A stretch of 64,000 nucleotides of DNA from Mumia flava (GTDB lineage Bacteria; Actinomycetota; Actinomycetes; Propionibacteriales; Nocardioidaceae), in NCBI RefSeq assembly GCF_002797495.1, contig NZ_PGEZ01000001.1, forward strand, positions 434,001 to 498,000, given 5' to 3'. How positions within the stretch are numbered: the stretch's first letter is position 1; each line of letters opens with the position of its first letter. Positions 1 to 47,482 of this stretch are shown one piece after another. Below the pieces are notes generated by a model that worked only from the letters and a program-made list of their open reading frames with translations, was not told the origin of the DNA and made no database searches. The translations under genes and the position numbers were made by a program.

Positions 1-254
1 ATGTCGATCCCGAGCGCCGGGACCTTCCGACGCGTGAGCGCCCCCGCGAGCCGGCCCGGACCGCAGCCGATGTCGAGGGTGAAGCCGGAGCAGCGGTCCA
101 CGAACAACCGGTGGTCGCCCTCGTCCGCGTCACCGCACCAGCGCCCGACCGGCAGCCGCAGCGAGGTGCCGTGGTCGGTCACGACCTCGGCGGACGCCCC
201 GGCGTACGCGTGGTCGACGACACTCCGGGAACGGCGGCCCCCGGCCTCGTCCAT
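1..254 (-). CDS. Class I SAM-dependent methyltransferase, N-terminal part (cut by window edge)
   Basis: Translating the minus strand from the ATG at 254 gives about 84 residues before the window ends. Near residue 60 there is a clear SAM-binding motif I, TLDIGCGPGRLAGAL, followed by a downstream LGID that fits the acidic end of strand beta 2. This is the Rossmann-like methyltransferase fold; the substrate cannot be read from the fragment. The ATG lies 17 bases after the stop of the DUF2064 gene, so it is probably the third gene of the GT2-DUF2064 operon. I see no convincing ribosome binding site before the ATG, and the true start could differ slightly. Placement next to DUF2064 and GT2 genes suggests a role in the same glycoconjugate pathway (inference). 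Confidence 0.75.
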   Translation of the reverse strand, partial: MDEAGGRRSRSVVDHAYAGASAEVVTDHGTSLRLPVGRWCGDADEGDHRLFVDRCSGFTLDIGCGPGRLAGALTRRKVPALGID

Positions 255-271
255 GGACGTGCGGAGCGCGG

Positions 272-982
272 TCACCGGGCTGCTCCGGCTCGCCGGCCGG
301 GCGTACGCCGGGCCGCCGCGATCGCCTGCACGGCCCTCGCCGTACGGGTCTGCGGCGCGGCCGACGCGATCGCGACCGCGTCGTCCCACGTGTCGAGGTC
401 GGACAGCGTGGGGCCGTACGCGACCCGCGCACCGGCGCGGGCGAGCGCGTCGCTGGTCCGTTCGCCGGTGTCGTGGCGCGACATCGGCACGTCGGCCAGC
501 GGCTCGGCCCAGCGCGCCGCCCGGACGCCGAGCACCCACCAGCCGCCGTCGGTCGCCGGCCCGAGGACCGCGTCGGCCTCGGCCAGACCGGCGCCGACGG
601 CCTCGAGGTGCGCGGGCGTCACCTGTGGCGTGTCCATCCCGATCTGCACCACGCCGTGCCCGTCGTCGGCGTCCGCGTGGGCCGCCGTGAGCCGCTCGGC
701 GAACGTCTCCCCGCGCTGCGCGACCACGCGGTACGGCGCGCAGGCGGCGGTGATCGCGTCGGCGTCCACCCCGTCGGCGAAGGACCCCGCGACCGCGATC
801 ACGACCGGCCACGGGCTGGTCGCGGCGACGTCGAGCGTGTCGAGCAGCGCAGCGGCGGCCACCGTCGCCGCGGCGCTCGCCCCGACGGTCGTCGCGAGCC
901 GGGTCTTCGCGACGCCGGGCACCGGGGCCTTGGCGACGACGAGCAGCGTCGGAGCGCCCGCCCGCGCCGGACGAGCGCTCAT
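272..982 (-). CDS. DUF2064 / TIGR04282-type glycosyltransferase-like protein
   Basis: This 236-residue protein opens with TLLVVAKAPVPGVAKTRLA, the signature of the DUF2064 family, whose members have a GT-A/nucleotidyltransferase-like fold. Further on it has MDTPQV (the acidic sugar-nucleotide site region), LGPATDGGWWVLG and SDLDTWDD, all typical of the family. It is full length. The ATG at 982 overlaps the stop of the upstream GT2 gene by 4 bases (ATGA), so translation is coupled. Family members occur in arsenosugar clusters and in the mycobacterial Rv0540 position; their exact reaction is not settled. Here I infer activation or transfer of a sugar made by the MTA phosphorylase and epimerase encoded further right. 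Confidence 0.88.
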   Translation of the reverse strand: MSARPARAGAPTLLVVAKAPVPGVAKTRLATTVGASAAATVAAAALLDTLDVAATSPWPVVIAVAGSFADGVDADAITAACAPYRVVAQRGETFAERLTAAHADADDGHGVVQIGMDTPQVTPAHLEAVGAGLAEADAVLGPATDGGWWVLGVRAARWAEPLADVPMSRHDTGERTSDALARAGARVAYGPTLSDLDTWDDAVAIASAAPQTRTARAVQAIAAARRTPGRRAGAAR

Positions 983-1641
983 CGGACGACCTTCGCGAAG
1001 TCCACCGCGACCCGCGCCGTCCCTCGTACCGAGCCGGAGACCTTCGAGCGTGTCCCGGCGGCACGTGGGCGGTACGCGACGTCGTGCTCGGTGATCGTCC
1101 AACCCGCCCCGCCGGCCTTGATCATGAGCTCGAGCGGGTAGCCGAACCGCCGGTCGCGCACGTCCAGCTCCAACAGCGCCTCGCGGGAGCAGACGCGCAG
1201 CGGCGCGAGGTCGTGGATGCCGAGCGCGCTCGAGCGCCGGATCCACCACGCCATCAACGCGGTCCCGGCCCGGGCGTGCCACGGCCACACGCCGCGCGCG
1301 ACCGGCCGGCGACGTCCGATCGCCATCGTGGCACGGCCGGCGAGCACGTCGTCGAGCAGCGGGTCGAGGTCGCGCGGGTCGAGCGATGCGTCGCCGTCGA
1401 TCACCGCGACGTACGGCGCGGTGGCCGCCAGCACACCGGCGTGCACCGCCGCGCCGTACCCCGGTGTCGGCTCCGCGACCACCCGAGCTCCGAGGCTCCG
1501 GGCCACGTCAGCGGTGCCGTCGCGCGAGCCGTTGTCGACGACCACGACACCGAACCGCCGCGGCACCTGTCGCAGCACCCCCGGCAGGGCCAGGGCTTCG
1601 TCTCGGCACGGCACCACGAGGTCGCACACCGGTTCGTCCAT
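979..1641 (-). CDS. GT2 glycosyltransferase, polyprenyl-phosphate sugar synthase type
   Basis: A 220-residue soluble family 2 glycosyltransferase. It starts with the usual LVVPCRDEALALPGVL strand, has VVVVDNGSRDGT at residues 33-43 and the metal-binding DGD at 82-84, followed by a C-terminal part with no membrane segments. Short GT2 enzymes of this shape normally transfer a sugar from a nucleotide donor to a polyprenyl phosphate, like dolichol-phosphate mannose synthase. It is the first gene of a minus-strand operon with DUF2064 and a methyltransferase. The ATG at 1641 was chosen because it fits the family N terminus and sits 6 bases after a TACGTT minus-10 hexamer, implying a leaderless message; the open frame upstream of it runs through tandem repeats and is not coding. 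Confidence 0.9.
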   Translation of the reverse strand: MDEPVCDLVVPCRDEALALPGVLRQVPRRFGVVVVDNGSRDGTADVARSLGARVVAEPTPGYGAAVHAGVLAATAPYVAVIDGDASLDPRDLDPLLDDVLAGRATMAIGRRRPVARGVWPWHARAGTALMAWWIRRSSALGIHDLAPLRVCSREALLELDVRDRRFGYPLELMIKAGGAGWTITEHDVAYRPRAAGTRSKVSGSVRGTARVAVDFAKVVR

Positions 1642-1647
1642 GTCTCG

Positions 1648-1702
1648 AACGTACGGACGGCTGCGCCGTTCCGCAGGCCGGAAGCGGTGACGAACCCGTG
1701 AC
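1648..1702 (-). promoter_or_regulatory. Leaderless promoter with 16-base direct-repeat operator for the GT2 operon
   Basis: Reading the minus strand, TACGTT (1653-1648) fits the actinobacterial TANNNT minus-10 and ends 6 bases before the ATG at 1641. At 1687-1702 the plus strand reads GTGACGAACCCGTGAC, two GTGAC boxes 11 bases apart centre to centre, the usual geometry of an OmpR-family dimer site. The same 16 bases occur at 4972-4987 before the operon that encodes the response regulator. Binding is inferred. Confidence 0.55.
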
Positions 1703-1765
1703 ACCGCGCCGACCGGGCCTGCGTGGGCCGGACCGCGCGCGGACCCGGCGCGGACGCGCCCGGCG

Positions 1766-1977
1766 GACTCCGTAGCCGGCTGGGGAGACCCGCACTGGGC
1801 ACGGGAAACCATCCGCGCCCACTGGCAGACTCCGTAGCCGGCTGGGCAGACCCGCACTGGGCACGGGAAACCATCCGCGCCCACTGGCAGACTCCGTAGC
1901 CGGCTGGGCAGACCCGCACTGGGCACGGGAAACCTTCCGCGCCCACTGGCAGACTCCGTAGCCGGCTGGGCAGACCG
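1766..1977. repeat. 62-bp tandem repeat, three full copies plus a partial fourth
   Basis: Units beginning GACTCCGTAGCCGGCTGGG start at 1766, 1828, 1890 and 1952, exactly 62 bases apart; the fourth stops after about 26 bases. Copies differ by only one or two bases. The array fills most of the 381-base gap between the GT2 gene start and the LuxR-type gene end. Its core GTAGCCGGCTGGG and the segment GGAAACCATCCGCGCC recur near 47.3 kb, and the core again near 50.36 kb, so it belongs to a dispersed intergenic family. No gene is visible in the gap. Confidence 0.95.
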
Positions 1978-2022
1978 CCACGGGCAGACCCTCAACCCGC
2001 AATCCGCAACCACCGCGTCCGG

Positions 2023-3660
2023 TCAGCCCCGCGTGACCAGCCGGTGCTCGTACGCGTACGCCGCCGCCGCGGTCCGCGAACCGACGTCGATCTTCGCGAA
2101 GATGTTGCTCAGGTGCCGAGCCACGGTGCGGTCGCTCAGGACCAGGCGGTCGGCGATCTCGGCGTTCCCCAGCCCTTCGGCGACCAGCGCCAGGACCTCG
2201 ACCTCGCGAGCCGTGAGGCCGTCGGGACGGGGCGGCGGCTCCAGCAGCGCCCGTGCTCGCGCCGCGGCGGGGAGTGCGCCGATCGCCGTCAGGTTCGCGC
2301 ACGCCTGGGCGAGCTCCTCGCGACCCGAGTCGACGTCACCGAGCGCGTGCACCGCCACCGCGCACAGCGCCTGCGCCATCGCGCTCTCGTACACCGCGCC
2401 GAGCGCGGCCCAGCTGCGCTGCGCCTGCCGACCGGCTTGCAGCGCCGCGCTCGGATCGCCACGGGCCCACGCGACCTGCGCATCGGCCCACGCCGACGAA
2501 GCCGCCAGCCCGTCGCACCCGAAGTCGTCGACGAGCTGCGTCAGCCGCGCGGCAGCCTCGGCCGCCTCGTCCAGCGCGTCGGCACCGATCAGGACCTCGA
2601 CCGCGGTGGGGAGCAGCCGAGCCTGCGCGAGCGGATCCGGGTCCTGCCCCACCGCACGGCGTACGGCGGCAGCCGCAGCCTGGTCGTCTCCCTCGTCGCG
2701 GATCAGGAGGGCCGCGCCGGGCTGCGGATCGAGCCCGAGTTCGCGAGCGAGCCGGTAGCAGCCTCGCGCGGCGGCCAGGTCCCCGCGGATCCGGTGCAGG
2801 TCGCCCCGCTCGCGGTGCACCGCCGCGACGGCGTCCACGTTCCCGACGGCCCGGTACCGATGTTCGGCCACGTCCAGCTCGGCGGATGCGTCGTCGTACG
2901 CGCCGCGCAGCCGCATGATCTGTGCCCGGTGGACGGCGCTCTGACCGGTGAACATCACCAGACCGGGCTGCCGGTCGCACCATGCCGACAGCTGCGCCGT
3001 CCAGGCGGCGGCGCGCGCGAGGTCCGTGACCTCCTGGCAGCCTTCGACGAGCATGCAGTACACCTCACCCGCGAAGATCAGATCGACCTCACCGGAACCC
3101 AGGTACACCATCGCCTCGTCCAGCAGGTCCACTCCCTCACGGATCCGTGAGAGGCGGATGAGCAGCCTTCCCTGCATCGCGAGGGACAGCGCGAAAAGCA
3201 CGGAATCGTGGAACCGGTTCGCGAGATGCGCGACGTCGAGCGCCGCCTCGTACGCCCCCTCGACGTCGCCGTGCCTGCGGCGCCGGTCGACGTCGTGCAG
3301 CATCAGGTAGCCGTGGCCCGCGAGCGGTTCGTCCTGCTCGTCGGCGAGGCGCCGCGCCCGCGCGAGACAGCCGGCGGCGACGGTGGGTTCGCCGCTCGTG
3401 ACGTACACCCGCGCGGCCAGGCTGCCGCAGCGCAGTGCACGGTCGACGTCACCGGCGGCCGCAGCAGCGTCGAAGGCCCGCTGGAACGCCTCCGCGCTGC
3501 GGCTGGTCCGGCCCAGCATGAACGCGGTCGTCGCGACCCGCTGGAGGTCGTCGGCGTCCATCTGCTCGTCCGGGACGGCCGACAGGGCGGTGCCCGCAGT
3601 CGCCCAGTCGCCCTGCTGGTACGCCTGCCGCGCGCGGTGAAGCTGCTCGACGATGCCCAT
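2023..3660 (-). CDS. LuxR-family regulator with long TPR-like sensor region
   Basis: A 545-residue protein. Residues about 480-545 form a LuxR helix-turn-helix: LTAREVEVLALVAEGLGNAEI, then RTVARHLSNIFAKIDVGSR. The preceding 470 residues are Ala/Leu-rich helical hairpins (QGDWATAGTALSAVP, ARGDPSAALQAGRQA) like TPR repeats. There is no Walker A motif, so it is not a full MalT/LAL ATPase regulator but resembles the many actinobacterial TPR-LuxR proteins of unknown signal. ATG at 3660 is preceded by GAGGG. It lies 59 bases downstream of the flavin monooxygenase gene on the same strand, so the two may be cotranscribed and this regulator may control it (inference). Confidence 0.88.
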   Translation of the reverse strand: MGIVEQLHRARQAYQQGDWATAGTALSAVPDEQMDADDLQRVATTAFMLGRTSRSAEAFQRAFDAAAAAGDVDRALRCGSLAARVYVTSGEPTVAAGCLARARRLADEQDEPLAGHGYLMLHDVDRRRRHGDVEGAYEAALDVAHLANRFHDSVLFALSLAMQGRLLIRLSRIREGVDLLDEAMVYLGSGEVDLIFAGEVYCMLVEGCQEVTDLARAAAWTAQLSAWCDRQPGLVMFTGQSAVHRAQIMRLRGAYDDASAELDVAEHRYRAVGNVDAVAAVHRERGDLHRIRGDLAAARGCYRLARELGLDPQPGAALLIRDEGDDQAAAAAVRRAVGQDPDPLAQARLLPTAVEVLIGADALDEAAEAAARLTQLVDDFGCDGLAASSAWADAQVAWARGDPSAALQAGRQAQRSWAALGAVYESAMAQALCAVAVHALGDVDSGREELAQACANLTAIGALPAAARARALLEPPPRPDGLTAREVEVLALVAEGLGNAEIADRLVLSDRTVARHLSNIFAKIDVGSRTAAAAYAYEHRLVTRG

Positions 3661-3719
3661 GGGCCCTCGCGCCTCACGATACGCGCGTCAGGTCCCCGTC
3701 CGCGGCCGTGTGCGGCTCC

Positions 3720-4835
3720 TCACGCCGCGACCGGTCGCCTGGTCCGACTGCGCACGCGCTCGTCGATCCGGCACGCGACGTACGCGGCGTCGCGCGAGGC
3801 CCCCGGCAGCAGCATCGACGCGAACCCGAACTGGAAGCTCAGCCCGCAGAAGTACAGCCCGGGCACGTCGGCGACCACACCGCGGTACTCGCGCGGCCAC
3901 CCGTCGTCGCCGATGACGTCGAGGTGGATCCAGTCGAACGCCTGACGGAACCCGGTGCACCACACGACCGCCGCCGCGTCCACGACCGTACCGTCGTCGA
4001 GCACCGGGCTTCCGTCGTCGGCGCCGGCGAACCGAGCCTCCGTCCGCACCACGCCGCGTGCTGCGAGGTCCGCCCGCTTGACGCGGAGCGCTGGCCCGCC
4101 GTGGTGGCGGACCTCGTCGAGCTTCTTGCGTCCGATCGGGGTCCTCCGGGTCAGCACGTGCCCGAACACGAACAGCAGCAGGGGGAAGACCGCCTTGAAC
4201 CGGCCCGACCCGAGCGTCACCGGCAGCTCGCCGACGTCACGTCCGCACAGGGTCACCGGACGCGACTCGGCGAGCTCGTAGGCGATGTCCGTGCCGGAGT
4301 GCGCCGCCCCGACCACCAGTATGCGCCCGTCCGGAAGCTGCCCGGGCCGCCGGTAGCGGCTCGAGTGCAGCTGCACGATCGCGTCGTCGAGCTCGGCCGC
4401 ACCGGCGGGGACGTACGGTGTGCGTCCGAAGGTGCCGGTGGCGACGACGACCTGGTCGGCCCGGATCAGCCCGTCCGAGGTGGTCGCGACGAACCCGCCG
4501 CCGCCGTCCGGGTCGAGCGCCCGGACGCGGGTGCCGAGCCGCACGGGCAACGCGTGGTGCTCGGCGTAGGCCTCGAGGTAGTCGGCGACGTCGTCCTTGC
4601 CGGGGAACGACCACGGGTCTCCCGGGAACGGCAGCCCGGGCAGCCCGTCGTACCGCGCCGGCGTGTAGAGCCGCAGCGAGTCCCACTGCCGGCGCCAGTT
4701 GTCGCCGACCCGTTCGTTGGCGTCGAGGACCAGGGCGTCGTGGCCCGTCCGCTTCAGGTGGTACGCGGTGGCGAGGCCGGTCTGGCCCGCTCCCACGATC
4801 AGGGTCTCGACGTTCTCGGTGGTGTGCCTGGACAT
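3720..4835 (-). CDS. Flavin-containing monooxygenase-like NAD(P)/FAD oxidoreductase
   Basis: A 371-residue protein with the FAD Rossmann motif VGAGQTG at residues 14-20 (first helix LATAYHLKRTG), the WDSLRLYTPARYDGLPG segment typical of CzcO/YUCCA-like monooxygenases, and a second dinucleotide motif VGAAHSG at 175-181 for NAD(P)H. VQLHSSRYR at about 154-162 matches the FMO/BVMO fingerprint region and WCTGF lies near the C terminus. It should be cytosolic and use NAD(P)H and O2; the substrate is unknown. The start at 4835 was chosen because GAGGAGG sits just upstream. It is divergent from the GT-C operon and followed by the LuxR-type gene. Confidence 0.88.
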   Translation of the reverse strand: MSRHTTENVETLIVGAGQTGLATAYHLKRTGHDALVLDANERVGDNWRRQWDSLRLYTPARYDGLPGLPFPGDPWSFPGKDDVADYLEAYAEHHALPVRLGTRVRALDPDGGGGFVATTSDGLIRADQVVVATGTFGRTPYVPAGAAELDDAIVQLHSSRYRRPGQLPDGRILVVGAAHSGTDIAYELAESRPVTLCGRDVGELPVTLGSGRFKAVFPLLLFVFGHVLTRRTPIGRKKLDEVRHHGGPALRVKRADLAARGVVRTEARFAGADDGSPVLDDGTVVDAAAVVWCTGFRQAFDWIHLDVIGDDGWPREYRGVVADVPGLYFCGLSFQFGFASMLLPGASRDAAYVACRIDERVRSRTRRPVAA

Positions 4836-4971
4836 GGCGTCCTCCTCGTTCGATTCGTCGGGGGACGTCCAGGACGCTACGGAGCGCACGGCGCCGGCCG
4901 CGTCGGCAGCGATGCGCACCTGCACGGCGGGCACGTGGGCAGGACTGCGTACGGCGCGCCGCGACCTCCCC

Positions 4972-5037
4972 GTGACGAACCCGTGACGCTCCCGCGCGCG
5001 GCCCGCGTCCGCCGCAGGCCGCCTCTACGCTGGGCGC
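4972..5037 (+). promoter_or_regulatory. Leaderless promoter and shared direct-repeat operator for the GT-C/RR/HK operon
   Basis: GTGACGAACCCGTGAC at 4972-4987 is an exact copy of the 16 bases at 1687-1702 and consists of two GTGAC boxes 11 bases apart, as expected for an OmpR-type regulator. TACGCT at 5026-5031 fits a TANNNT minus-10 element and ends 6 bases before the GTG at 5038, so the transcript is probably leaderless. There is no good minus-35, which suits an activated promoter. Autoregulation by the regulator at 6390-7154 is inferred. Confidence 0.6.
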
Positions 5038-6387
5038 GTGGCCTCCACCGAACGTCGTCGTACCCGCACGGCGCTGGCCGGGGCGGCCGCGGGCGCGGTG
5101 CTGGTCGCGGTCGCGACGGCCTGGCCGGCGCTGTCCGGGACCGACGTGCACATCGGGATCTCGGGCTGGCCGCGCTTCCCGCCCCTGCACGCCAACTGGC
5201 GCCCCGGCGTCACGGCCACGTCGATCCTCCCCGTCCTGGTCGGGATCGCGGTGATCGTGCTCTGGCCGCGGATCGCGCGGCTGCGCTGGCCGGCGTTCCT
5301 CGGCGCGCTGTTCGCGGCGACGTGGGCGTGGGTGATGTCGCTGGCGCTGGTCGACGGCCTCGACGGGCTCGGCGAGGTGTTCACCCGCAAGGGCGAGTAC
5401 CTCTACGACGCCGGCCGCGTCACCTCGATCCCCGCGATGCTGCCGGAGTTCGTCGACCGGATCCCGCTGTCGGCGCCGGACCACTGGTGGATCCACGTCG
5501 CCGGGCACCCGCCGGGCGCGCTGATCTCCTTCGTCGGCCTCGACCGGATCGGCATCAGCGACCCGGTGGCGGTCGGGTTCGTGGTCGCCACGATCGGCTG
5601 TACGGCGGTGGTCGCGGCCGCGATCACCCTGCGTCTGCTCGCCGGTGAGCACTGGGCGCGCCGTGCGGGGCCGTGGTGGGTGCTCGCGCCGGCCGCGGTG
5701 TGGATCGGCGTCACGGCCGACGCCGCGTTCGCTGCGGTCGCCGCCTGGGGGCTCGCCGCCCTGGCGTACGCCGGGGTCACCCGCAGCCGACTCCGTACAG
5801 CCGTGGCCGGGCTCGGCGCGGGGCTGCTTCTCGGGTTCTGCGTCTACCTCTCGTACGGGCTGGTGCTGCTCGGCATCCCGGCGGTCGCGATCCTCCTGCT
5901 CACGCGCCGCCTCGCGCCCTTGGCCTGGGCGCTGCTCGGCGCGCTGGCGATCGCGGCGGCGTTCACGCTCGCCGGGTTCGCGTGGTGGGAGGCGTACGGC
6001 GTGCTGCACGACCGCTACTACGCCGGGATCGCGTCGGACCGTCCGTACGGCTACTGGGTCTGGGCCAACGTCGCCGCGTGGACCTTCACGGTCGGGCTCG
6101 CGACCTGGGCCGGCCTGCCCGCGGCAGCATCGGCGCTGCTGCGGCGGCCGGTCGTACGAGACGGTCGGTTCGCGCTGTCTGCGATGGTCGCCGCCGGCCT
6201 GACCTGCATCGTCGCCGCGACGCTGTCGGGGATGAGCAAGGCCGAGGTGGAGCGGATCTGGCTCCCGTTCACGCTCTGGGTCCTCCCGGCCGCGGCGCTG
6301 CTCCCCGAACGCCTGCGCCGCCCGTTCCTGGTCGTGCAGGTCGTGACCGCCCTGCTGATCCAGCATCTCCTCATGACGCGGTGGTGA
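5038..6387 (+). CDS. GT-C-like polytopic membrane protein, probable lipid-linked sugar transferase
   Basis: A 449-residue integral membrane protein with about ten or eleven hydrophobic segments. Between the early membrane helices there is a long loop with KGEYLYD (E120, D124) followed by DHWWIHVAGHPPGAL (about 148-162); an acidic residue in the first loop plus an HPP motif is the pattern of GT-C enzymes such as ArnT and protein mannosyltransferases that use polyprenyl-phosphate sugars. Mycobacterial Rv0541c occupies the equivalent genomic position. GTG start at 5038 with a minus-10 hexamer 6 bases upstream. It is the first gene of an operon with a response regulator (2-base gap) and a histidine kinase. 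The enzymatic role is inferred from topology, motif and synteny. Confidence 0.75.
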   Translation: MASTERRRTRTALAGAAAGAVLVAVATAWPALSGTDVHIGISGWPRFPPLHANWRPGVTATSILPVLVGIAVIVLWPRIARLRWPAFLGALFAATWAWVMSLALVDGLDGLGEVFTRKGEYLYDAGRVTSIPAMLPEFVDRIPLSAPDHWWIHVAGHPPGALISFVGLDRIGISDPVAVGFVVATIGCTAVVAAAITLRLLAGEHWARRAGPWWVLAPAAVWIGVTADAAFAAVAAWGLAALAYAGVTRSRLRTAVAGLGAGLLLGFCVYLSYGLVLLGIPAVAILLLTRRLAPLAWALLGALAIAAAFTLAGFAWWEAYGVLHDRYYAGIASDRPYGYWVWANVAAWTFTVGLATWAGLPAAASALLRRPVVRDGRFALSAMVAAGLTCIVAATLSGMSKAEVERIWLPFTLWVLPAAALLPERLRRPFLVVQVVTALLIQHLLMTRW

Positions 6388-6389
6388 CG

Positions 6390-7154
6390 ATGGAGGCTGC
6401 CGCGACCGCCCACGTGCTCGTGATCGAGGACGACCCGAGCGTCCGCGACGTCGTGCGCCGCTACCTCGAGCACGACGGCCACCGTGTCACGGTCGCCGTC
6501 GACGGCGAGTCCGGCCTCCGTACGGCCCTCGACGACGCGCCCGATCTCGTCGTGCTCGATCTGATGCTCCCGGGGATCGACGGGATCGAGGTGTGCCGCC
6601 GGCTGCGCGCCGACCCCGCGCGCGGGACCACGCCGGTCGTCATGCTCACCGCGCTCGTCGAGGAGGAGCGCAGGATCGCCGGCCTCACCGTCGGCGCCGA
6701 CGACTACGTGACGAAGCCGTTCAGCGCGAAGGAGCTCGCGCTGCGGGTCCGCGCGGTGCTGCGCCGTACGGCGGGATCCGCCGCCGATCCGGGTGCCGCG
6801 CCCGCCCCGAGCCCGATGCGCGACGGCGACCTCGTGCTCGACCCGGCCGCCCGTACCGCCGAGCTCGGTGGGGAGCCGCTCGCGCTGACCGCGCGGGAGT
6901 TCGACCTGCTCGCGTTCCTGCTCGCGCGGCCCGGGCAGGTGTTCAGCCGGGCTGACCTGCTGGCGCAGGTCTGGGGTTGGTCGTTCGGCGACCACTCGAC
7001 CGTCACCGTGCACGTGAAGCGCCTGCGGCACAAGATCGAAGAGGTCCCGGCCGAGCCGCGCCGGATCGTCACGGTGTACGGGGTGGGCTACCGCTACGAC
7101 CGCGAGGCCGACGGGGAGCGCGAGCGGGAGGGGGTCGGCGATGGCGTCGGATGA
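6390..7154 (+). CDS. OmpR/PhoB-family response regulator
   Basis: A 254-residue two-domain regulator. The receiver has the acidic pocket EDD (13-15), phosphoacceptor D57 in [10 protein letters not shown]87 and K109 in VTKPF. A Pro/Ala linker (about 130-143) leads to a winged-helix effector domain with [19 protein letters not shown] and [14 protein letters not shown], the recognition helix region, ending [12 protein letters not shown] at 6390 follows the GT-C stop by 2 bases. It should be phosphorylated by the kinase encoded by the next gene, which overlaps it by 14 bases. Likely targets are the two promoters carrying the GTGAC direct repeats (inference). Confidence 0.95.
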
Positions 7155-8160
7155 CCTGCGGGCGGTTGCGCTGGGGATGCTCTGCTCCCTCATCGTCGTC
7201 GGCGCAGGAGCGCTGGCGCTGCGAGCCGTACGGCAGCGTGCGCTCGCCGTCTCGCTGCTGCTGCTCACCCTGGTCCCGCTGGTGGCGATCGTCGCCGGCG
7301 TGGCGGTGACCAGCGGGTTCATGTTCACCGCCGAGCTGCGCCGGACCACACTGGTCTGGCTCGGCGTCGCGCTCGTCTGCCTCCCGGCCGCGGTGCTGCT
7401 CGGCCGCATGCTCGCGCGGCGGATCGTCTGGGAGCGTGAGGCGCTGGAGCGCGAACGGGCCGCGGAGGCCTCGCGGCGCGAGCTGATGACCTGGCTGAGC
7501 CACGATCTGCGGACGCCGGTCGCCGGGATCCGCGCGATGAGCGAGGCGCTCGAGGACGGCATCGTGTCGGGGCCGCACGACGTACGCGACTACGCGCGGC
7601 GGATCCGTTCGGAGTCGGTGCGGCTCGGGCGGATGGTCGACGACCTGTTCGAGATGTCGCGGATCACCGCCCCGCGGTTCCGGCTGCTCACCGAGCCGGT
7701 CTCGCTCGCCATGCTGGCCGACGAGGTGGTCGCGTGGGCGCGGGCGCAGGCGGACGCCGGACGCGTGACGCTCGAGCGGCGCGGGGTCGACGCGATCGTC
7801 GTCGCCGCCCCCGACGAGCTCGCCCGCGCTCTGGCGAACCTCGTCGCGAACGCCCTGCGCCACACCCCCGCCGACGAGGTCGTGCGCGTGCTGACCGGCG
7901 TCGACGGGACCGCCGGTCGGATCGACGTCGTCGACGCGTGCGGCGGGATCCCCGAGGCGGACCTGCCGCACCTGTTCGAGCCGGGCTACCGCGGAACGCT
8001 GGCTCGCGAGACCGACCCCGGAGGCGAGTCAGGAGCCGGGATGGGCCTCGCGATCGCCGCCGGGCTGCTGCACGCGCAGGGCGGTGCGGTGGGTGTTCGC
8101 AACGTGCCCGGTGGGTGCTGCTTCAGCATCCGGATGCCGCTGGACCGCGTCCAGCCCTGA
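7141..8160 (+). CDS. Sensor histidine kinase partner of the 6390 regulator
   Basis: A 339-residue kinase with two N-terminal membrane helices (about 8-27 and 36-58) and a third near 71-88, with almost no extracytoplasmic loop, then a HisKA domain with H121 in [12 protein letters not shown], an N box [13 protein letters not shown] (231-243), G1 region [20 protein letters not shown] and G2 [10 protein letters not shown]. The first glycine of the usual DxGxG G1 motif is Cys267; I believe this variant is common in this kinase subfamily. The short extracellular part suggests it senses the membrane or a membrane partner, plausibly the GT-C protein or a lipid-linked sugar (inference). ATG at 7141 overlaps the regulator gene by 14 bases. 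Confidence 0.93.
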
Positions 8161-8182
8161 GCCCGTACGACCGGTGCCGCCT

Positions 8183-8201
8183 GCGCCCGTACGGCGGGCG
8201 C
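8183..8201. terminator. Hairpin between convergent genes
   Basis: GCGCCCG (8183-8189) and CGGGCGC (8195-8201) form a perfect 7-bp stem with a 5-base loop in the 52-base gap between the histidine kinase (plus) and the exported protein (minus). A bidirectional terminator is likely; no T tract is present, which is common in GC-rich actinobacteria. Confidence 0.5.
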
Positions 8202-8212
8202 CGGACAGCCGC

Positions 8213-9427
8213 TCAGCGGCGGCGGAGCTTCACCGCGCGGCTCTGCGCGCTCGGGCCTGCAGCCGACCGTGCCACCACGCGGCACCGGTACGCGCGATTG
8301 CGCTTCAGCCGCTTCACGACGATCTTCCGCTTCGCCGCTCCCGCCGACGCCTTCCGGCGGTGATGGCCGCGCGTCGCCTTGCACATCACCTTGTAGCCCT
8401 TGATCCGCGCCCCGCGAGCCTTCGACGCGCGGTACCGGACCGCACCCTTGCGCGCCTTGACGCGTTTCGCCCTCACCTTCGTCGGACGGGTCGGTGTGAC
8501 CGTGCCGCGGCGGATCCGCACGTTGCGTGCAGAGAACGTCATGTTGTCGAGCAGCACCTGCAGCTCGCTGCCGACGAGGCTGATCCGTACGGTGGCGCCA
8601 CCCGCACCCAGCACGTCGATCCCCGACGTCGTGAGCGTCGACGGGTCCGGCACGCCGTACGCCACCCGCAGGAACGCGTCCGGCACCACGAGCTCCGTAC
8701 GCCCGCGGACCACCGTGGTGCCGTCCTCACGGTAGTGACGGTTTGCGAGCAGGATCCGCAGCATCGCACGACCGGCGGGATCGTCCACGATCTCGGGCAG
8801 GCCGCTGCTGGCAGCGACGTTGGTGAAGAAGGTCATCCCGTACGACGCGGCGCGCTGGGTCGTGTTGCGCCACTGGCCGAAGTCGGTGACCTGGAAGTTC
8901 AGGGCGGCGTCCCACTCACCGTTCTCCACCGGGTCGGGGTCGTCGGCCCACTCCGGGCAGGTCCAGGGCCAGGACGACTGGTCGCACTGCCCGGAGATCG
9001 TCACCGGATCCAGCGCGAGACGCACGCGGTAGCCGCCCGGACGGCTGCGCTGCACCGCGACGTCGCGACCGCTCCCGGTGACCACACGCGGGATCATGCT
9101 GCCCGTCTCGAGCGTCACCACCCACCGGTGCCCGAGCTCGGACCCGCCGATGTCCGGGTCGCCGTTCTTCAGCAGCGACGCACCGATCACCCGGCCGCCC
9201 TCGTACGTCCAGCGGTGGACGTAGAGGTCCCAGACGGGGTGGCCGGCGGGGATCGCCACGCCGTCACGGGTCACGGACGCGACGCACGGCAGACCTGCGC
9301 CCGGCTCGCTGCAGCGCAGCACCTCGACGTCCACGCCGGCGGCCGGGCTGCTCACCGCCGTGACAGCAGCGGTCGGCGCCGCCAGCACCAGCGCGGCCGC
9401 CGCCGCGATCGACCTCAGTCGTCTCAT
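8213..9427 (-). CDS. Secreted protein of unknown function with basic Fn3-like C-terminal domain
   Basis: A 404-residue protein with a clear signal peptide (MRRLRSIAAAAALVLAAPTAAV, cleavage probably after an Ala near 25-30). The middle 270 residues are beta-rich, Trp/Asp-rich and contain several Cys; I do not recognise a family. Residues about 315-404 form a strongly basic fibronectin-III-like module (TKVRAKRVKARKGAVRYR, then GYKVMCKATRG, YRCRVVARSAAGPS), a decoration common on exported Nocardioidaceae proteins. It lies between two halves of the sugar locus on the minus strand, but nothing ties it functionally to them. The hairpin at 9588-9647 separates it from the epimerase upstream. Confidence 0.75.
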   Translation of the reverse strand: MRRLRSIAAAAALVLAAPTAAVTAVSSPAAGVDVEVLRCSEPGAGLPCVASVTRDGVAIPAGHPVWDLYVHRWTYEGGRVIGASLLKNGDPDIGGSELGHRWVVTLETGSMIPRVVTGSGRDVAVQRSRPGGYRVRLALDPVTISGQCDQSSWPWTCPEWADDPDPVENGEWDAALNFQVTDFGQWRNTTQRAASYGMTFFTNVAASSGLPEIVDDPAGRAMLRILLANRHYREDGTTVVRGRTELVVPDAFLRVAYGVPDPSTLTTSGIDVLGAGGATVRISLVGSELQVLLDNMTFSARNVRIRRGTVTPTRPTKVRAKRVKARKGAVRYRASKARGARIKGYKVMCKATRGHHRRKASAGAAKRKIVVKRLKRNRAYRCRVVARSAAGPSAQSRAVKLRRR

Positions 9428-9587
9428 CGTCGCTCCCCCGTCGGCACGATCGCCGCCGGACGAACCGCGGCGGCTCCGCGAGCGTAGCGGTGCCCGGGGA
9501 CCACTCGGGGCCGTCTTTCAGGGACGGCCGGGCCGGCACGACGCACGCGGACAGCACTCCACCCGGGCCGCGAGCTGCAGGGCATGT

Positions 9588-9647
9588 GTGCGTCTTGATT
9601 TGCTCGCACACCGTGCGCGTACGGTGTGCGAGGAAATCAAGACGCAC
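9588..9647 (-). terminator. 27-bp hairpin downstream of the epimerase gene
   Basis: Arms 9588-9614 and 9621-9647 are complementary at 26 of 27 positions around a 6-base loop; the stem contains a locally AT-rich patch (TCTTGATTT / AAATCAAGA). It begins 50 bases after the epimerase stop, so a strong terminator for the MTA phosphorylase-epimerase unit is the simplest reading. Its length and single central mismatch resemble the hairpin at 11737-11804 on the other side of the same pair. Confidence 0.6.
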
Positions 9648-9696
9648 GGTGCTCGTCGCACGGCGGGCTCAGCCGGCCCTTGCTCCGACGAGCTCG

Positions 9697-10740
9697 TCAG
9701 CGGGTGCGGAGCGGCGCGTGCGCGAGATCCGCCAGCCCCTCGGCGGGTGGGACCTCCGCCGTGAACCCGAGCTCGTCGTACGCCCGCTGCGGCGACGCGA
9801 CCACGTGCCGGACGTCGTACGGGCGGTGGTCGCCGGTGACCACCGGATCCGGACCGTCGCCGGCCGCCGCGAGGATCCGTGCCATCTCCCCCAACGTGCA
9901 CGGGTGGCCGGACGCCACGTTGTACGCGTGCAGGCCGCTGGCCAGGTCACCGACGCGTTCCAGGGCCGCGAGGTTGGCCCGCGCGACGTCGCGGACGTGC
10001 ACGAAGTCGCGCATCTGCTGCCCGTCCTCGAACACCCGCGGCGCCTGCCCGCGCTCCAGCGCCGAGCGGAAGATCGCCGCGACCCCGGAGTACGGGGTGT
10101 CTGCGGGCATCCCCGGCCCGTACACGTTGTGGTAGCGCAGCGCCACCGCCGAGCCGCCCTCGAGCGTGCACCACGCGGACGCGTAGTGCTCCTGCGCGAC
10201 CTTCGACGCGGCGTACGACGTGCGGGGCTCGAAGGCCGCGTCCTCGCCGACGTGCCGCCACGTCACCGGCGCTCCGCAGACCCCGCAGCCGGGGTCGAAC
10301 CGCCCCGCGTCCAGGTCGTCGACCCGCCGCGGCGCCGGCGGGACGTCGCCGTGCTCCGCACAGGTGTAGCGCCCGTCGCCGTACACGACCATCGACGACG
10401 CCAGCACGAGCCGCCCGACGCCGGCGCGCCCCATCGCGGCGAGGAGGACCGCCGTGCCGTGGTCGTTGTGGTCGGCGTAGGCGGGCAGGTCCTGCGCGTC
10501 GACGCCGTTGCCGACCATCGCGGCCTGGTGGCAGACCGCGTCGACGCCCTCGAGCGCCGCGTCGACGTCGGCGGCGCGCCGTACGTCGCCGTGGCGGACG
10601 CCGGGCGGTACGGGGGCCTGCGCGCGGTGTGCGGCGGGATGCATGAGGTCGAGCCCGACGATCTCGTGGCCGGCCTCGCGCAGCACCGCGCTGACGTGGG
10701 TCCCGATGAACCCGGCCGCGCCGGTCACCAGCACCCTCAT
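9697..10740 (-). CDS. NAD-dependent epimerase/dehydratase (extended SDR) with CxxC insertion
   Basis: A 347-residue extended short-chain dehydrogenase. It has the NAD motif GAAGFIG at residues 7-13, catalytic Ser115/116 in LASSMVVYG, and YxxxK as Y176-K180 in SYAASKVAQEHY, then RYHNVYGPG. Between strand 5 and the catalytic Tyr there is an unusual insertion with C127, H130, C152 and C155 (YTCAEHG ... PGCGVCGAP), a possible zinc site. It sits 37 bases downstream of the MTA phosphorylase gene; the homologous mycobacterial pair is Rv0535-Rv0536 (galE3). A reasonable role is 3-epimerisation of a nucleotide-linked methylthioribose to the xylo form (inference). Confidence 0.85.
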   Translation of the reverse strand: MRVLVTGAAGFIGTHVSAVLREAGHEIVGLDLMHPAAHRAQAPVPPGVRHGDVRRAADVDAALEGVDAVCHQAAMVGNGVDAQDLPAYADHNDHGTAVLLAAMGRAGVGRLVLASSMVVYGDGRYTCAEHGDVPPAPRRVDDLDAGRFDPGCGVCGAPVTWRHVGEDAAFEPRTSYAASKVAQEHYASAWCTLEGGSAVALRYHNVYGPGMPADTPYSGVAAIFRSALERGQAPRVFEDGQQMRDFVHVRDVARANLAALERVGDLASGLHAYNVASGHPCTLGEMARILAAAGDGPDPVVTGDHRPYDVRHVVASPQRAYDELGFTAEVPPAEGLADLAHAPLRTR

Positions 10741-10777
10741 CCGGCGCTCATCCGGTCCGGGCTCACAGCACGGTCGC

Positions 10778-11590
10778 TCACGGGAGCGTGATCGGCAGGT
10801 CGAGCCCGTCGAGCGCGTGACTGCACCCGCAGTCGCGGTCGGCGGGCACGGTCGCGGCCATGTCGCGCAGCGCGGGGCGGAGCCGGTCGAGGTGCTCCGC
10901 GAACACCCGGATCACCTCCGCATGACTCACCTCGTCGCCCGCCTCGACCCCGGCGTCGAGGTCCGTGACGAGGCAGACGGTGGCATAGCAGAGCGCGAGC
11001 TCGCGGGCGAGGATCGCCTCGGGGTGGCCCGTCATGCCGATCACCGACCAGCCGTTGCCGGAGTACCAGCGCGACTCCGCGCGGGTCGAGAACCGCGGCC
11101 CGTCGATCACCACGAGCGTCCCGCCGTCGACCGCGCCGCCCGGCGCGCCGGCGAGCAGCGTGTCGCGCAGCCGCGGGCAGTACGGGTCGGCGAACGCGAC
11201 GTGGACCGCGCCGTCGTCGTAGTAGGTCTGGATCCGCTTGGTGGTCCGGTCGACGAGCTGGTCGGGGACGACGAGCGTGCCCGGTCCGAGCTCGGGCTGG
11301 AGCCCGCCGACGGCGCACGGCGCGAGGATCTGGCGGACGCCGAGGCTGCGCAGGGCCCAGAGGTTCGCGCGGTACGGGACCCGGTGGGCGGGGAAGGCGT
11401 GGTGCTTGCCGTGGCGCGGGAGGAACGCGACGGTCCGCGGCCCACCGTCGGCGGCGACCGTACCGACCGTCACCGGCGCGGACGGCGGCCCGTATGGGGT
11501 GTCGACCTCCACCTCGGTGACGTCGTCGAACAGCGAGTAGAAGCCCGTCCCGCCGATCACGGCGACCTCGGGGATGCGCTCAGCGTCCAT
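10778..11590 (-). CDS. mtnP: S-methyl-5'-thioadenosine phosphorylase
   Basis: A 270-residue nucleoside phosphorylase of the MTAP/PNP family. Motifs are VIGGTGFYSL at residues 9-18 (phosphate-binding), PRHGKHH, VPYRANLWALRSLG, APCAVGGLQPELGPG, the DGPRFSTRAES phosphate/substrate loop and GMTGHPEAILARE. It would split methylthioadenosine with phosphate to adenine and 5-methylthioribose-1-phosphate, in purine and methionine salvage or, here, to feed a methylthiopentose pathway. Specificity for MTA over other purine nucleosides is family-based inference. ATG at 11590 was chosen by homology; the frame upstream reads only through an 18-bp tandem repeat. The epimerase follows on the same strand. Confidence 0.9.
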   Translation of the reverse strand: MDAERIPEVAVIGGTGFYSLFDDVTEVEVDTPYGPPSAPVTVGTVAADGGPRTVAFLPRHGKHHAFPAHRVPYRANLWALRSLGVRQILAPCAVGGLQPELGPGTLVVPDQLVDRTTKRIQTYYDDGAVHVAFADPYCPRLRDTLLAGAPGGAVDGGTLVVIDGPRFSTRAESRWYSGNGWSVIGMTGHPEAILARELALCYATVCLVTDLDAGVEAGDEVSHAEVIRVFAEHLDRLRPALRDMAATVPADRDCGCSHALDGLDLPITLP

Positions 11591-11632: not shown

Positions 11633-11730
11633 CCCGCACCCCGCGTACGTCCCGCACCCCGCGTACGTCCCGCACCCCGCGTACGTCCCGCACCCCGCGT
11701 ACGTCCCGCACCCCGCGTACGTCCCGCACC
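11633..11730. repeat. 18-bp tandem repeat, five copies, upstream of the MTA phosphorylase
   Basis: Five perfect copies of CCCGCACCCCGCGTACGT run from 11633 to 11722, followed by an 8-base partial copy. The array ends 43 bases before the mtnP start codon on the upstream side. Each unit contains GTAC. It may lie in the promoter or leader of the mtnP-epimerase unit; copy-number change could alter promoter spacing (inference). Confidence 0.95.
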
Positions 11731-15095: not shown

Positions 15096-15108
15096 AGCTG
15101 CTCCCCGC

Positions 15109-15272
15109 CCGTCGAGGCGCGAGCGCAGCACGCCCCCCGCTCGTCGAGGCGCGAGCGCAGCGAGGTCCCCCGCTCGTCGAGGCGCGAGCGCAGCGAGGAC
15201 CCCCGCTCGTCGAGGCGCGAGCGCAGCACGCCCCCCCGCTCGTCGAGGCGCGAGCGCAGCAAGCGATCGAGA
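15109..15272. repeat. 32/33-bp direct repeats with GTCGAGGCGCGAGCGCAGC core, five copies
   Basis: The 19-base core starts at 15111, 15143, 15176, 15209 and 15242, and the array ends with ATCGAGAC. It fills the gap between convergent tetR and vapC. The same core occurs twice at 46.26-46.30 kb next to an inverted copy. This resembles the REP-like intergenic elements common in high-GC actinobacteria; it probably does not encode anything. Confidence 0.95.
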
Positions 15273-46208: not shown

Positions 46209-46311
46209 GTCTCGATCCTCGCTCCGCTCGGCCTCGACGAACGGAACACCTCTTGGTCGAGGCGCGAGCGCAGCCCTCCCCGCTGGTCGAGGCGCGAGCG
46301 CAGCGAGGGAT
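46209..46311. repeat. REP-like element with inverted copies of the GTCGAGGCGCGAGCGCAGC core
   Basis: The core occurs at 46256-46274 and 46286-46304, ending in GAGGGATCGAGAC. To the left, TCTCGATCCTCGCTCCGCTC followed by GGCCTCGAC is a near-exact inverted copy, so RNA or cruciform folding is possible. With the GlnR region, it accounts for the 349-base gap between narK and hsp20; no gene is visible there. The same core forms the array at 15109-15272. Confidence 0.88.
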
Positions 46312-47293: not shown

Positions 47294-47469
47294 CGCAGAC
47301 CCGCACCCGGCTGGGGAAACCATCCGCGCCGGGTGGGAGTCTGCGTAGCCGGCTGGGAAGACCGTCAGGCCTCGAGCCGCGCCGAGTGGGAGTCTGCGTA
47401 GCCGGCTGGGAAGACCGTCAACCTCGAGCCGCGCCGGGTGAGAGTCTGCGTAGCCGGCTGGGAAGACCG

Positions 47470-47482
<13 letters not shown>
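47294..47482. repeat. 52/53-bp tandem repeats overlapping the 3' end of rnj
   Basis: Units beginning GAGTCTGCGTAGCCGGCTGGG start at 47337, 47390 and 47442. The third runs into the last codons of rnj: the stop region TCAGGCCTCGAGC is present in the units as well. An upstream segment (47294-47330) carries GGAAACCATCCGCGCC as in the 1766-1977 array. It fills the 222-base gap between convergent hspR and rnj. Confidence 0.93.

What the first reader, a model, noticed from the sequence alone, without database searches (positions are those of the whole stretch)
1..11590. A two-component-controlled methylthiopentose (MTX-like) glycoconjugate locus
MTA phosphorylase, NAD epimerase, GT2, DUF2064 protein and a GT-C-like membrane protein occur together. 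From memory, the same five families sit in the Mycobacterium tuberculosis Rv0535-Rv0541c region, which was linked to the 5-methylthioxylose cap of lipoarabinomannan. A pathway follows: MTA is phosphorolysed to methylthioribose-1-phosphate, activated (DUF2064 is a candidate), epimerised, loaded on polyprenyl phosphate by GT2 and transferred outside by the GT-C protein. Here the set is embedded with a response regulator/kinase pair and a methyltransferase, and the host is probably outside the mycobacteria. If correct, this lineage makes an uncharacterised methylthiosugar-decorated envelope glycan under two-component control.
Basis: partly seen in the sequence, partly recalled or inferred. Interest (0 to 1): 0.85.

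Follow-up and report, generated by a model that had tools for sequence, protein, structure and literature searches.

The report
Expanded methylthio-sugar envelope gene cluster
This actinobacterium carries a fuller version of the gene set that tuberculosis bacteria use to put a sulfur-containing sugar on their surface, and the extra genes suggest that such sugars are common in the group and may be kept in repair by their own metal enzyme.

Summary
MTA phosphorylase, SDR epimerase, GT2, DUF2064 and a GT-C protein lie together with an OmpR-type regulator/kinase pair and the start of a methyltransferase gene. All five are counterparts of the five genes at a menE-linked mycobacterial locus, the M. 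tuberculosis mtx arrangement. The GT-C fold is confirmed. The host lacks MtnA, so phosphorolysed MTA has no known methionine-salvage outlet. The methylthiopentose reading is well supported but not wholly new: from memory, the 2017 mtx paper already noted conservation in Actinomycetes. Just outside the window lie a Sco3746-type heme-b/molybdenum membrane enzyme and a small membrane protein. In 60 full-length named loci fetched by the GT-C, methyltransferase is in 49, molybdoenzyme 40, regulator and kinase 32, MTAP 25. In 396 phylum genomes the molybdoenzyme occurs in 47 of 55 with the GT-C and 14 of 341 without, in some about 390-500 kb away. Methylthioxylose and its sulfoxide both occur in LAM. 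I propose that the molybdoenzyme repairs the sugar's sulfoxide; untested, and fold searches do not separate reductase from oxidase.

The parts
10778..11590 (-). MTA phosphorylase (MtnP-type, Rv0535-like): MTA + Pi to 5-methylthioribose-1-phosphate + adenine (inferred reaction)
   Evidence: NCBIfam NF005876 426 bits, cut-off 306; the better of 2 matches to that model in the genome; 59% identical to the L084 copy
9697..10740 (-). SDR-family NDP-sugar epimerase (Rv0536-like), proposed C3 epimerase
   Evidence: PF01370 159 bits; best hits in 6 other genomes are all cluster genes, 317-430 bits, next hits at most 76
7141..8160 (+). sensor histidine kinase of the cluster
   Evidence: in 24 of 41 loci and 32 of 60 loci
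6390..7154 (+). OmpR/PhoB-class response regulator of the cluster
   Evidence: in 24 of 41 and 32 of 60 loci
5038..6387 (+). GT-C membrane glycosyltransferase (MtxT/Rv0541c-like): proposed transfer from polyprenyl-phosphate sugar to an envelope acceptor outside the membrane
979..1641 (-). GT2 (MtxS/Rv0539-like): proposed polyprenyl-phosphate methylthiopentose synthase
   Evidence: PF00535; closest NCBIfam models are N-glycosyltransferase AglJ and dolichyl/polyprenyl-phosphate sugar synthases, all below cut-off; best hits in 6 other genomes are the cluster genes
272..982 (-). DUF2064 / CofC-like protein (Rv0540-like), proposed nucleotidylyltransferase for the sugar-1-phosphate
   Evidence: PF09837 88 bits; TIGR04282 116.5 bits (cut-off 134); F420 CofC weak, 30 bits; one match in the genome
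1..221 (-). class I SAM methyltransferase, 5' part; gene continues outside the window to -411. Next to it, outside the window: heme-b/Moco enzyme (-1697..-408) and small membrane protein (-2179..-1697)
   Evidence: family above 200 bits against under 42 for other methyltransferases; in 49 of 60 loci

Best explanation
The locus is an expanded mtx-type cluster that makes a 5-deoxy-5-methylthio-pentose and hangs it on an envelope glycan. Steps inferred from family and from published mycobacterial work: MTA phosphorylase gives methylthioribose-1-phosphate; the DUF2064 protein activates it to a nucleotide sugar; the SDR protein epimerises it; the GT2 loads it on polyprenyl phosphate; the GT-C protein transfers it outside the membrane. 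Shown here: the genes are counterparts of the mycobacterial five-gene set, the GT-C protein is predicted to have the GT-C fold, and the host has no detectable methionine-salvage isomerase. New part, shown as an association: the wider set is methyltransferase + Moco/heme enzyme + small membrane protein + two-component pair. Inferred: the Moco/heme enzyme faces outwards (Sec/Tat assembly), takes electrons from menaquinol and reduces the methylsulfinyl (sulfoxide) form of the sugar back to the methylthio form, much as MsrPQ repairs methionine sulfoxide; the methyltransferase further methylates the sugar or its acceptor; the two-component pair regulates the set, perhaps in response to oxidants.
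For: Orthology and synteny. MTAP above cut-off. No MtnA by PF01008 or TIGR00512; 44 of 59 GT-C-positive genomes tested lack MtnA. GT-C fold. Moco enzyme searched on its own: full-length copies in 47 of 55 GT-C-positive and 14 of 341 GT-C-negative genomes (Fisher p 7e-40; by genus 23 of 31 against 6 of 215), and present though about 390-500 kb from the GT-C in G289, G556, G588 and G621. Enzyme build: invariant His69, His144, His158, Arg239-Arg240 and Cys331 in 29 rows, five long helices, the same architecture as Sco3746, described as dual Sec/Tat-inserted and as a distant homologue of MsrP/MsrQ (PMC5449189, passages). The sulfoxide of MTX is reported in LAM (PMC8531672, passages). MsrP-type enzymes are described as likely all reductases fed from the quinone pool, and msrPQ as under a two-component system (PMC7759655, passages).
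Confidence: 0.6

Rival explanations
1. The sugar is another 5-modified pentose, not plain methylthio: for example 5-deoxyribose from 5'-deoxyadenosine, which MTA phosphorylases can also cleave, or an O-methylated relative made with the cluster methyltransferase.
For: The methyltransferase is nearly as conserved as the core (49 of 60) and absent from the M. tuberculosis-type loci L084, L116 and L117, though G289 has it elsewhere; the MTX-Man antibody is negative in genera that carry the cluster (PMC6258851); a 5'-deoxyadenosine salvage paper, PMC8102628, was seen as a listing with the start of its abstract only, and use of MtnP-type enzymes there is recalled.
Against: MTAP matches the curated MTA phosphorylase model strongly; the nine protein groups that recur in 11 or more of the 41 loci are the ones named in this report, with no radical-SAM protein among them; the M. 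tuberculosis pathway with the same five families gives MTX.
Confidence: 0.2
2. The Moco/heme enzyme is a sulfite dehydrogenase or another oxidase, linked to the cluster for a different reason, for example as an oxidase that deliberately makes the sulfoxide, or a detoxifier of sulfur species.
For: Fold and sequence matches to sulfite oxidases are as strong as or stronger than to MsrP; NCBIfam SoxC model 43 bits and MsrP model 42 bits, both far below cut-off.
Against: No Mo-co dimerisation domain was found (E up to 0.01; that sulfite oxidases have it and MsrP does not is recalled); the best MsrP stretch covers the Mo-Cys region while the best chicken sulfite oxidase stretches are confined to the C-terminal end; a b-type di-heme membrane part linked to menaquinol would favour reduction (potentials recalled, not tested).
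Confidence: 0.3
3. Ordinary purine/MTA salvage gene that happens to lie beside unrelated envelope glycosylation genes and a two-component system.
For: MTAP is not in every cluster (25 of 60) and many genomes without the GT-C carry MTAP (124 of 341 over cut-off).
Against: MTAP is inside the cluster in 14 of the 24 genus-level labels sampled and is enriched in GT-C-positive genomes (45 of 55); no MtnA in the host.
Confidence: 0.05

Closest known systems
M. tuberculosis mtx cluster (Rv0535, Rv0536, Rv0539/MtxS, Rv0540, Rv0541c/MtxT), methylthioxylose cap of lipoarabinomannan
   Same: The five core families in one locus, matched gene by gene to the mycobacterial-type locus L084 (menB/menE-linked) at 41-63% identity. 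MtxS and MtxT are named for Rv0539 and Rv0541c in a figure legend of PMC8780516; the primary paper (ACS Chem Biol 2017) is not held and is recalled, as are the other three gene numbers.
   Different: Adds methyltransferase, Moco/heme enzyme, small membrane protein and a two-component pair; host is not a mycobacterium; acceptor unknown. No comparison with H37Rv sequences themselves was made.
Sco3746 family (Sec/Tat dual-inserted heme-b/molybdenum-cofactor protein of Streptomyces coelicolor)
   Same: Five transmembrane helices, twin arginine before the fifth, three conserved haem histidines, C-terminal Moco domain with Cys (PMC5449189, passages). In Streptomyces violaceoruber L167 such a gene sits in this cluster.
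   Different: The family had no assigned function in the passages read; the link to the methylthio-sugar genes is proposed here.
MsrP/MsrQ methionine sulfoxide reductase
   Same: Moco domain plus b-type haem membrane part, Moco domain outside; reduction of a thioether sulfoxide is the proposed chemistry; msrPQ is also described as under a two-component system (PMC7759655, passages).
   Different: Here one fused chain; MsrP model cut-off not reached; fold no closer to MsrP than to sulfite oxidase.
Three-component pentofuranose side-chain systems (PMC11127046)
   Same: Polyprenyl-phosphate pentofuranose donor and GT-C transfer outside the membrane.
   Different: Donor starts from PRPP there and from MTA here; the paper says it is unclear whether MTX modification exists outside LAM assembly (passage).

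Membership tests
mtx-type methylthioxylose cluster | MTA phosphorylase of the mycobacterial type (PRK07823) | tested here: met
   NF005876 426 bits, cut-off 306; L084 copy 480 bits
mtx-type methylthioxylose cluster | SDR epimerase and GT2 orthologous to the mycobacterial cluster genes | tested here: met
   Best hits in 6 of 6 other genomes (two of them mycobacterial-type) are the cluster genes with wide gaps; the reverse direction was not run
mtx-type methylthioxylose cluster | DUF2064 protein in the cluster | tested here: met
   52 of 60 loci
mtx-type methylthioxylose cluster | MtxT-like GT-C transferase | tested here: met
   41% to L084 copy; predicted GT-C fold
mtx-type methylthioxylose cluster | Product is 5-deoxy-5-methylthio-xylofuranose | not testable with these tools
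   needs glycan chemistry
mtx-type methylthioxylose cluster | Acceptor is the mannose cap of LAM | not tested
   No search for arabinan/LAM genes of the host was made; that Nocardioidaceae lack LAM is recalled only
Sco3746-type Sec/Tat heme-b/Moco protein | Five transmembrane helices with twin arginine before the fifth | tested here: met
   Arg239-Arg240 invariant in 29 rows; helices 18-46, 59-92, 99-130, 140-171, 239-261
Sco3746-type Sec/Tat heme-b/Moco protein | Three conserved haem histidines in the membrane part | tested here: met
Sco3746-type Sec/Tat heme-b/Moco protein | C-terminal molybdopterin domain with Mo-ligand cysteine | tested here: met
   PF00174 90 bits; Cys331 invariant; that this Cys is the Mo ligand is inferred from the family
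MsrP methionine sulfoxide reductase | Reaches the curated MsrP model cut-off | tested here: not met
   NF003767 41.8 bits, cut-off 207
MsrP methionine sulfoxide reductase | Moco-domain fold closer to MsrP than to sulfite oxidase | tested here: inconclusive
MsrP methionine sulfoxide reductase | Sulfoxide reductase activity | not testable with these tools
   needs enzyme assay

The most novel reading that the evidence does not exclude
Actinomycetota have a dedicated, self-repairing thio-sugar system: MTA, a waste product, is turned into a methylthio (and often further methylated) pentose on an envelope glycan, and a fused heme-b/molybdenum enzyme outside the membrane reduces the sugar's sulfoxide with menaquinol. 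As far as I know it would be the first glycan sulfoxide reductase, giving a function to the Sco3746 family and explaining the MTX/MSX pair in lipoarabinomannan; the thioether would act as a renewable oxidant trap under two-component control.
Probability: 0.3. Interest if true: 0.85.

Novelty: new variant of a known kind. Interest (0 to 1): 0.6.

Why it matters
Whether methylthioxylose-type decoration exists outside lipoarabinomannan is stated as unclear in PMC11127046 (passage). Clusters of this kind occur in Aeromicrobium, Nocardioides, Streptomyces, Brevibacterium, Microbacterium, Rhodococcus, Gordonia and others, so the question can be asked in harmless laboratory strains. The statistical link between the cluster and the Sco3746-type molybdoenzyme gives a testable function for an orphan enzyme family and a possible origin for the balance between methylthio and methylsulfinyl sugar.

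Tried and rejected
Rejected: LuxR, FAD oxidoreductase, FN3 and MMPL genes as parts of the system (0 of 60 loci). Rejected: arsenosugar biosynthesis, suggested by the TIGR04282 name of DUF2064; the score is below its cut-off (116.5 against 134) and no ArsS-like protein is among the recurrent groups. Led nowhere: the scan of viral contigs gave no GT-C relative; sequence search of the PDB with the GT-C protein gave only chance matches and with its profile none; only the fold search did. The PDB neighbours of the methyltransferase (9khp, 9klx) give no substrate. Attempt to show that the S. violaceoruber L167 Moco gene is Sco3746 itself from residues named in the eLife paper: 4 of 5 residues fit at one offset, no offset fits all 5, so it is called Sco3746-type only. 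Of the 14 genomes with the Moco enzyme but no GT-C hit, three were examined (G328, G430, G440) and carry the cluster with a GT87-family transferase nearby instead of the GT-C; the other 11 were not. In the phylum searches only the best few candidates per genome were scored (4, at most 6), so absences there are less certain. Of the 80 named loci, 20 shorter than 20.5 kb were left out of the counts. Paper searches for prior art were made; their listings showed no paper linking the Moco enzyme to methylthio sugars, but they list only the best hits, and the primary 2017 mtx paper and most subscription papers are not held.
Full report
Observation. The window is G000:C1:434001-498000 of a 4.40 Mb, 99.75% complete genome. 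Gene reading across the left edge and family scans give, from right to left: MTAP, epimerase, FN3 secreted protein, kinase and regulator (opposite strand), GT-C (opposite strand), FAD oxidoreductase, LuxR regulator, GT2, DUF2064, methyltransferase, then outside the window a Moco/heme enzyme and a small membrane protein, then recA.

Orthology. With window proteins as queries, the best hits in six other genomes are the cluster copies: GT2 177-233 bits against at most 71 for any other gene, epimerase 317-430 against at most 76. In L084 (genome G289) the five core genes lie in the arrangement of the M. tuberculosis locus: GT-C beside menE (o-succinylbenzoate-CoA ligase), and a menB whose best solved match is 1q51 (654 bits over all 300 residues). 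Identities to the window are 41% (GT-C), 49% (DUF2064), 55% (GT2), 63% (epimerase) and 59% (MTAP). The genome search flagged one stop inside the G289 epimerase match, but the L084 frame reads open over 347 residues. No H37Rv sequence was compared directly. MtxS and MtxT are named for Rv0539 and Rv0541c in PMC8780516 (figure legend).

Spread. The GT-C was found in 49 of 147 order genomes, 39 of them strongly, the other ten at about 20-28 bits (counted in 104), in 55 of 396 phylum genomes and in 158 of 198 genomes of the genus of G289, a few of these weak or fragmentary. A scan of named genomes kept the best 80 loci of at least 562 relatives. In the 60 full-length named loci, under 24 genus-level labels set by hand from record titles, the counts are: GT2 52, DUF2064 52, epimerase 51, methyltransferase 49, small membrane protein 41, Moco enzyme 40, regulator 32, kinase 32, MTAP 25, and LuxR/FAD/FN3/MMPL 0. 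An earlier set of 41 loci, window included, gave methyltransferase 36, GT2 36, DUF2064 36, epimerase 34, Moco enzyme 33, small membrane protein 27, regulator 24, kinase 24, MTAP 18. These loci were fetched by the GT-C, so the numbers describe neighbourhoods, not independent co-occurrence. Ten of the 60 lack at least one of GT2, DUF2064 and epimerase. Aeromicrobium (L121, L124) and Gordonia (L196) have the window's order without the inserted genes. The two-component pair is therefore a widespread part of the cluster, not a local addition; but L034, from the window's own genus, has the core without it.

Methyltransferase. The family is sharply set off: members score above 200 bits, other methyltransferases below 42. 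Of 18 GT-C-positive genomes tested, 16 have it; 0 of 8 mycobacterial-genus genomes without an intact GT-C do. Four further genomes without a clear GT-C that had it turned out to carry the rest of the cluster. Its substrate is unknown.

Metabolic setting. The host has no MtnA by PF01008 or TIGR00512. Of 59 GT-C-positive genomes tested, 15 have MtnA, 11 of them in the large-genome genus g22, probably Streptomyces. MTAP over its cut-off occurs in 45 of 55 GT-C-positive genomes and 124 of 341 others.

Mechanism. The core pathway follows the published mycobacterial scheme, which I know partly from passages (PMC11127046: MTA as the starting metabolite, polyprenyl-phosphate donor, GT-C transfer) and partly from memory. 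The added proposal is that the Moco enzyme repairs the sulfoxide form: MTX and MSX are both reported in LAM (PMC8531672), group-1 sulfite-oxidase-family enzymes are said to be likely reductases fed from the quinone pool (PMC7759655), and the enzyme travels with the cluster. This is inference.

Against the reading. An MTX-Man antibody does not bind the nonmycobacterial LAM producers tested, among them Nocardia, Gordonia and Rhodococcus, nor fast-growing mycobacteria (PMC6258851). If their clusters are active, the sugar, its methylation or its acceptor must differ from the M. tuberculosis cap. MTAP is often outside the cluster, and 8 of 55 GT-C-positive phylum genomes, as well as one of the window's own genus, lack a full-length Moco enzyme.

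Verdict. A real, conserved locus; a new variant of a known kind. The conservation of the five-gene set in Actinomycetes was, from memory, already noted in 2017. The larger module with the molybdoenzyme, methyltransferase and regulator is what adds interest.

Noticed in passing
window 1762-1976 and 47324-47482: 62-bp array (3.5 copies, 98%) just upstream of the GT2 gene, and a 53-bp array elsewhere sharing part of its sequence.
   Followed up: no
window 15103-15260, 46253-46300; L002:12893-13063: A repeat with the core GTCGAGGCGCGAGCG occurs at two places in the window; a closely similar 54-57 bp array lies inside the Moco enzyme gene, in frame, lengthening the linker before the last membrane helix.
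   Followed up: partly
window 11633-11730: 18-bp perfect tandem array (5.4 copies) just upstream of the MTA phosphorylase gene.
   Followed up: no
L002:9504-11723 (window -4496..-2277): recA reads as a 739-residue protein, much longer than the 390-401 residues in the relatives L034 and L041; the extra middle part looks like an intein (not scanned).
   Followed up: no
G597 and G628 (3.3 Mb genomes of the genus of G289): Only weak fragments of the GT-C remain, with no methyltransferase family member or Moco enzyme: the system seems to have decayed in these reduced genomes.
   Followed up: partly
L107, L108, L109, L112: Streptomyces-type loci where a GT87-family membrane transferase stands next to the methyltransferase or Moco enzyme in place of the usual GT-C.
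   Followed up: partly
G003:C1:153770-155121: The GT-C gene of this relative reads in two adjoining pieces, so it may be broken or mis-assembled.
   Followed up: no
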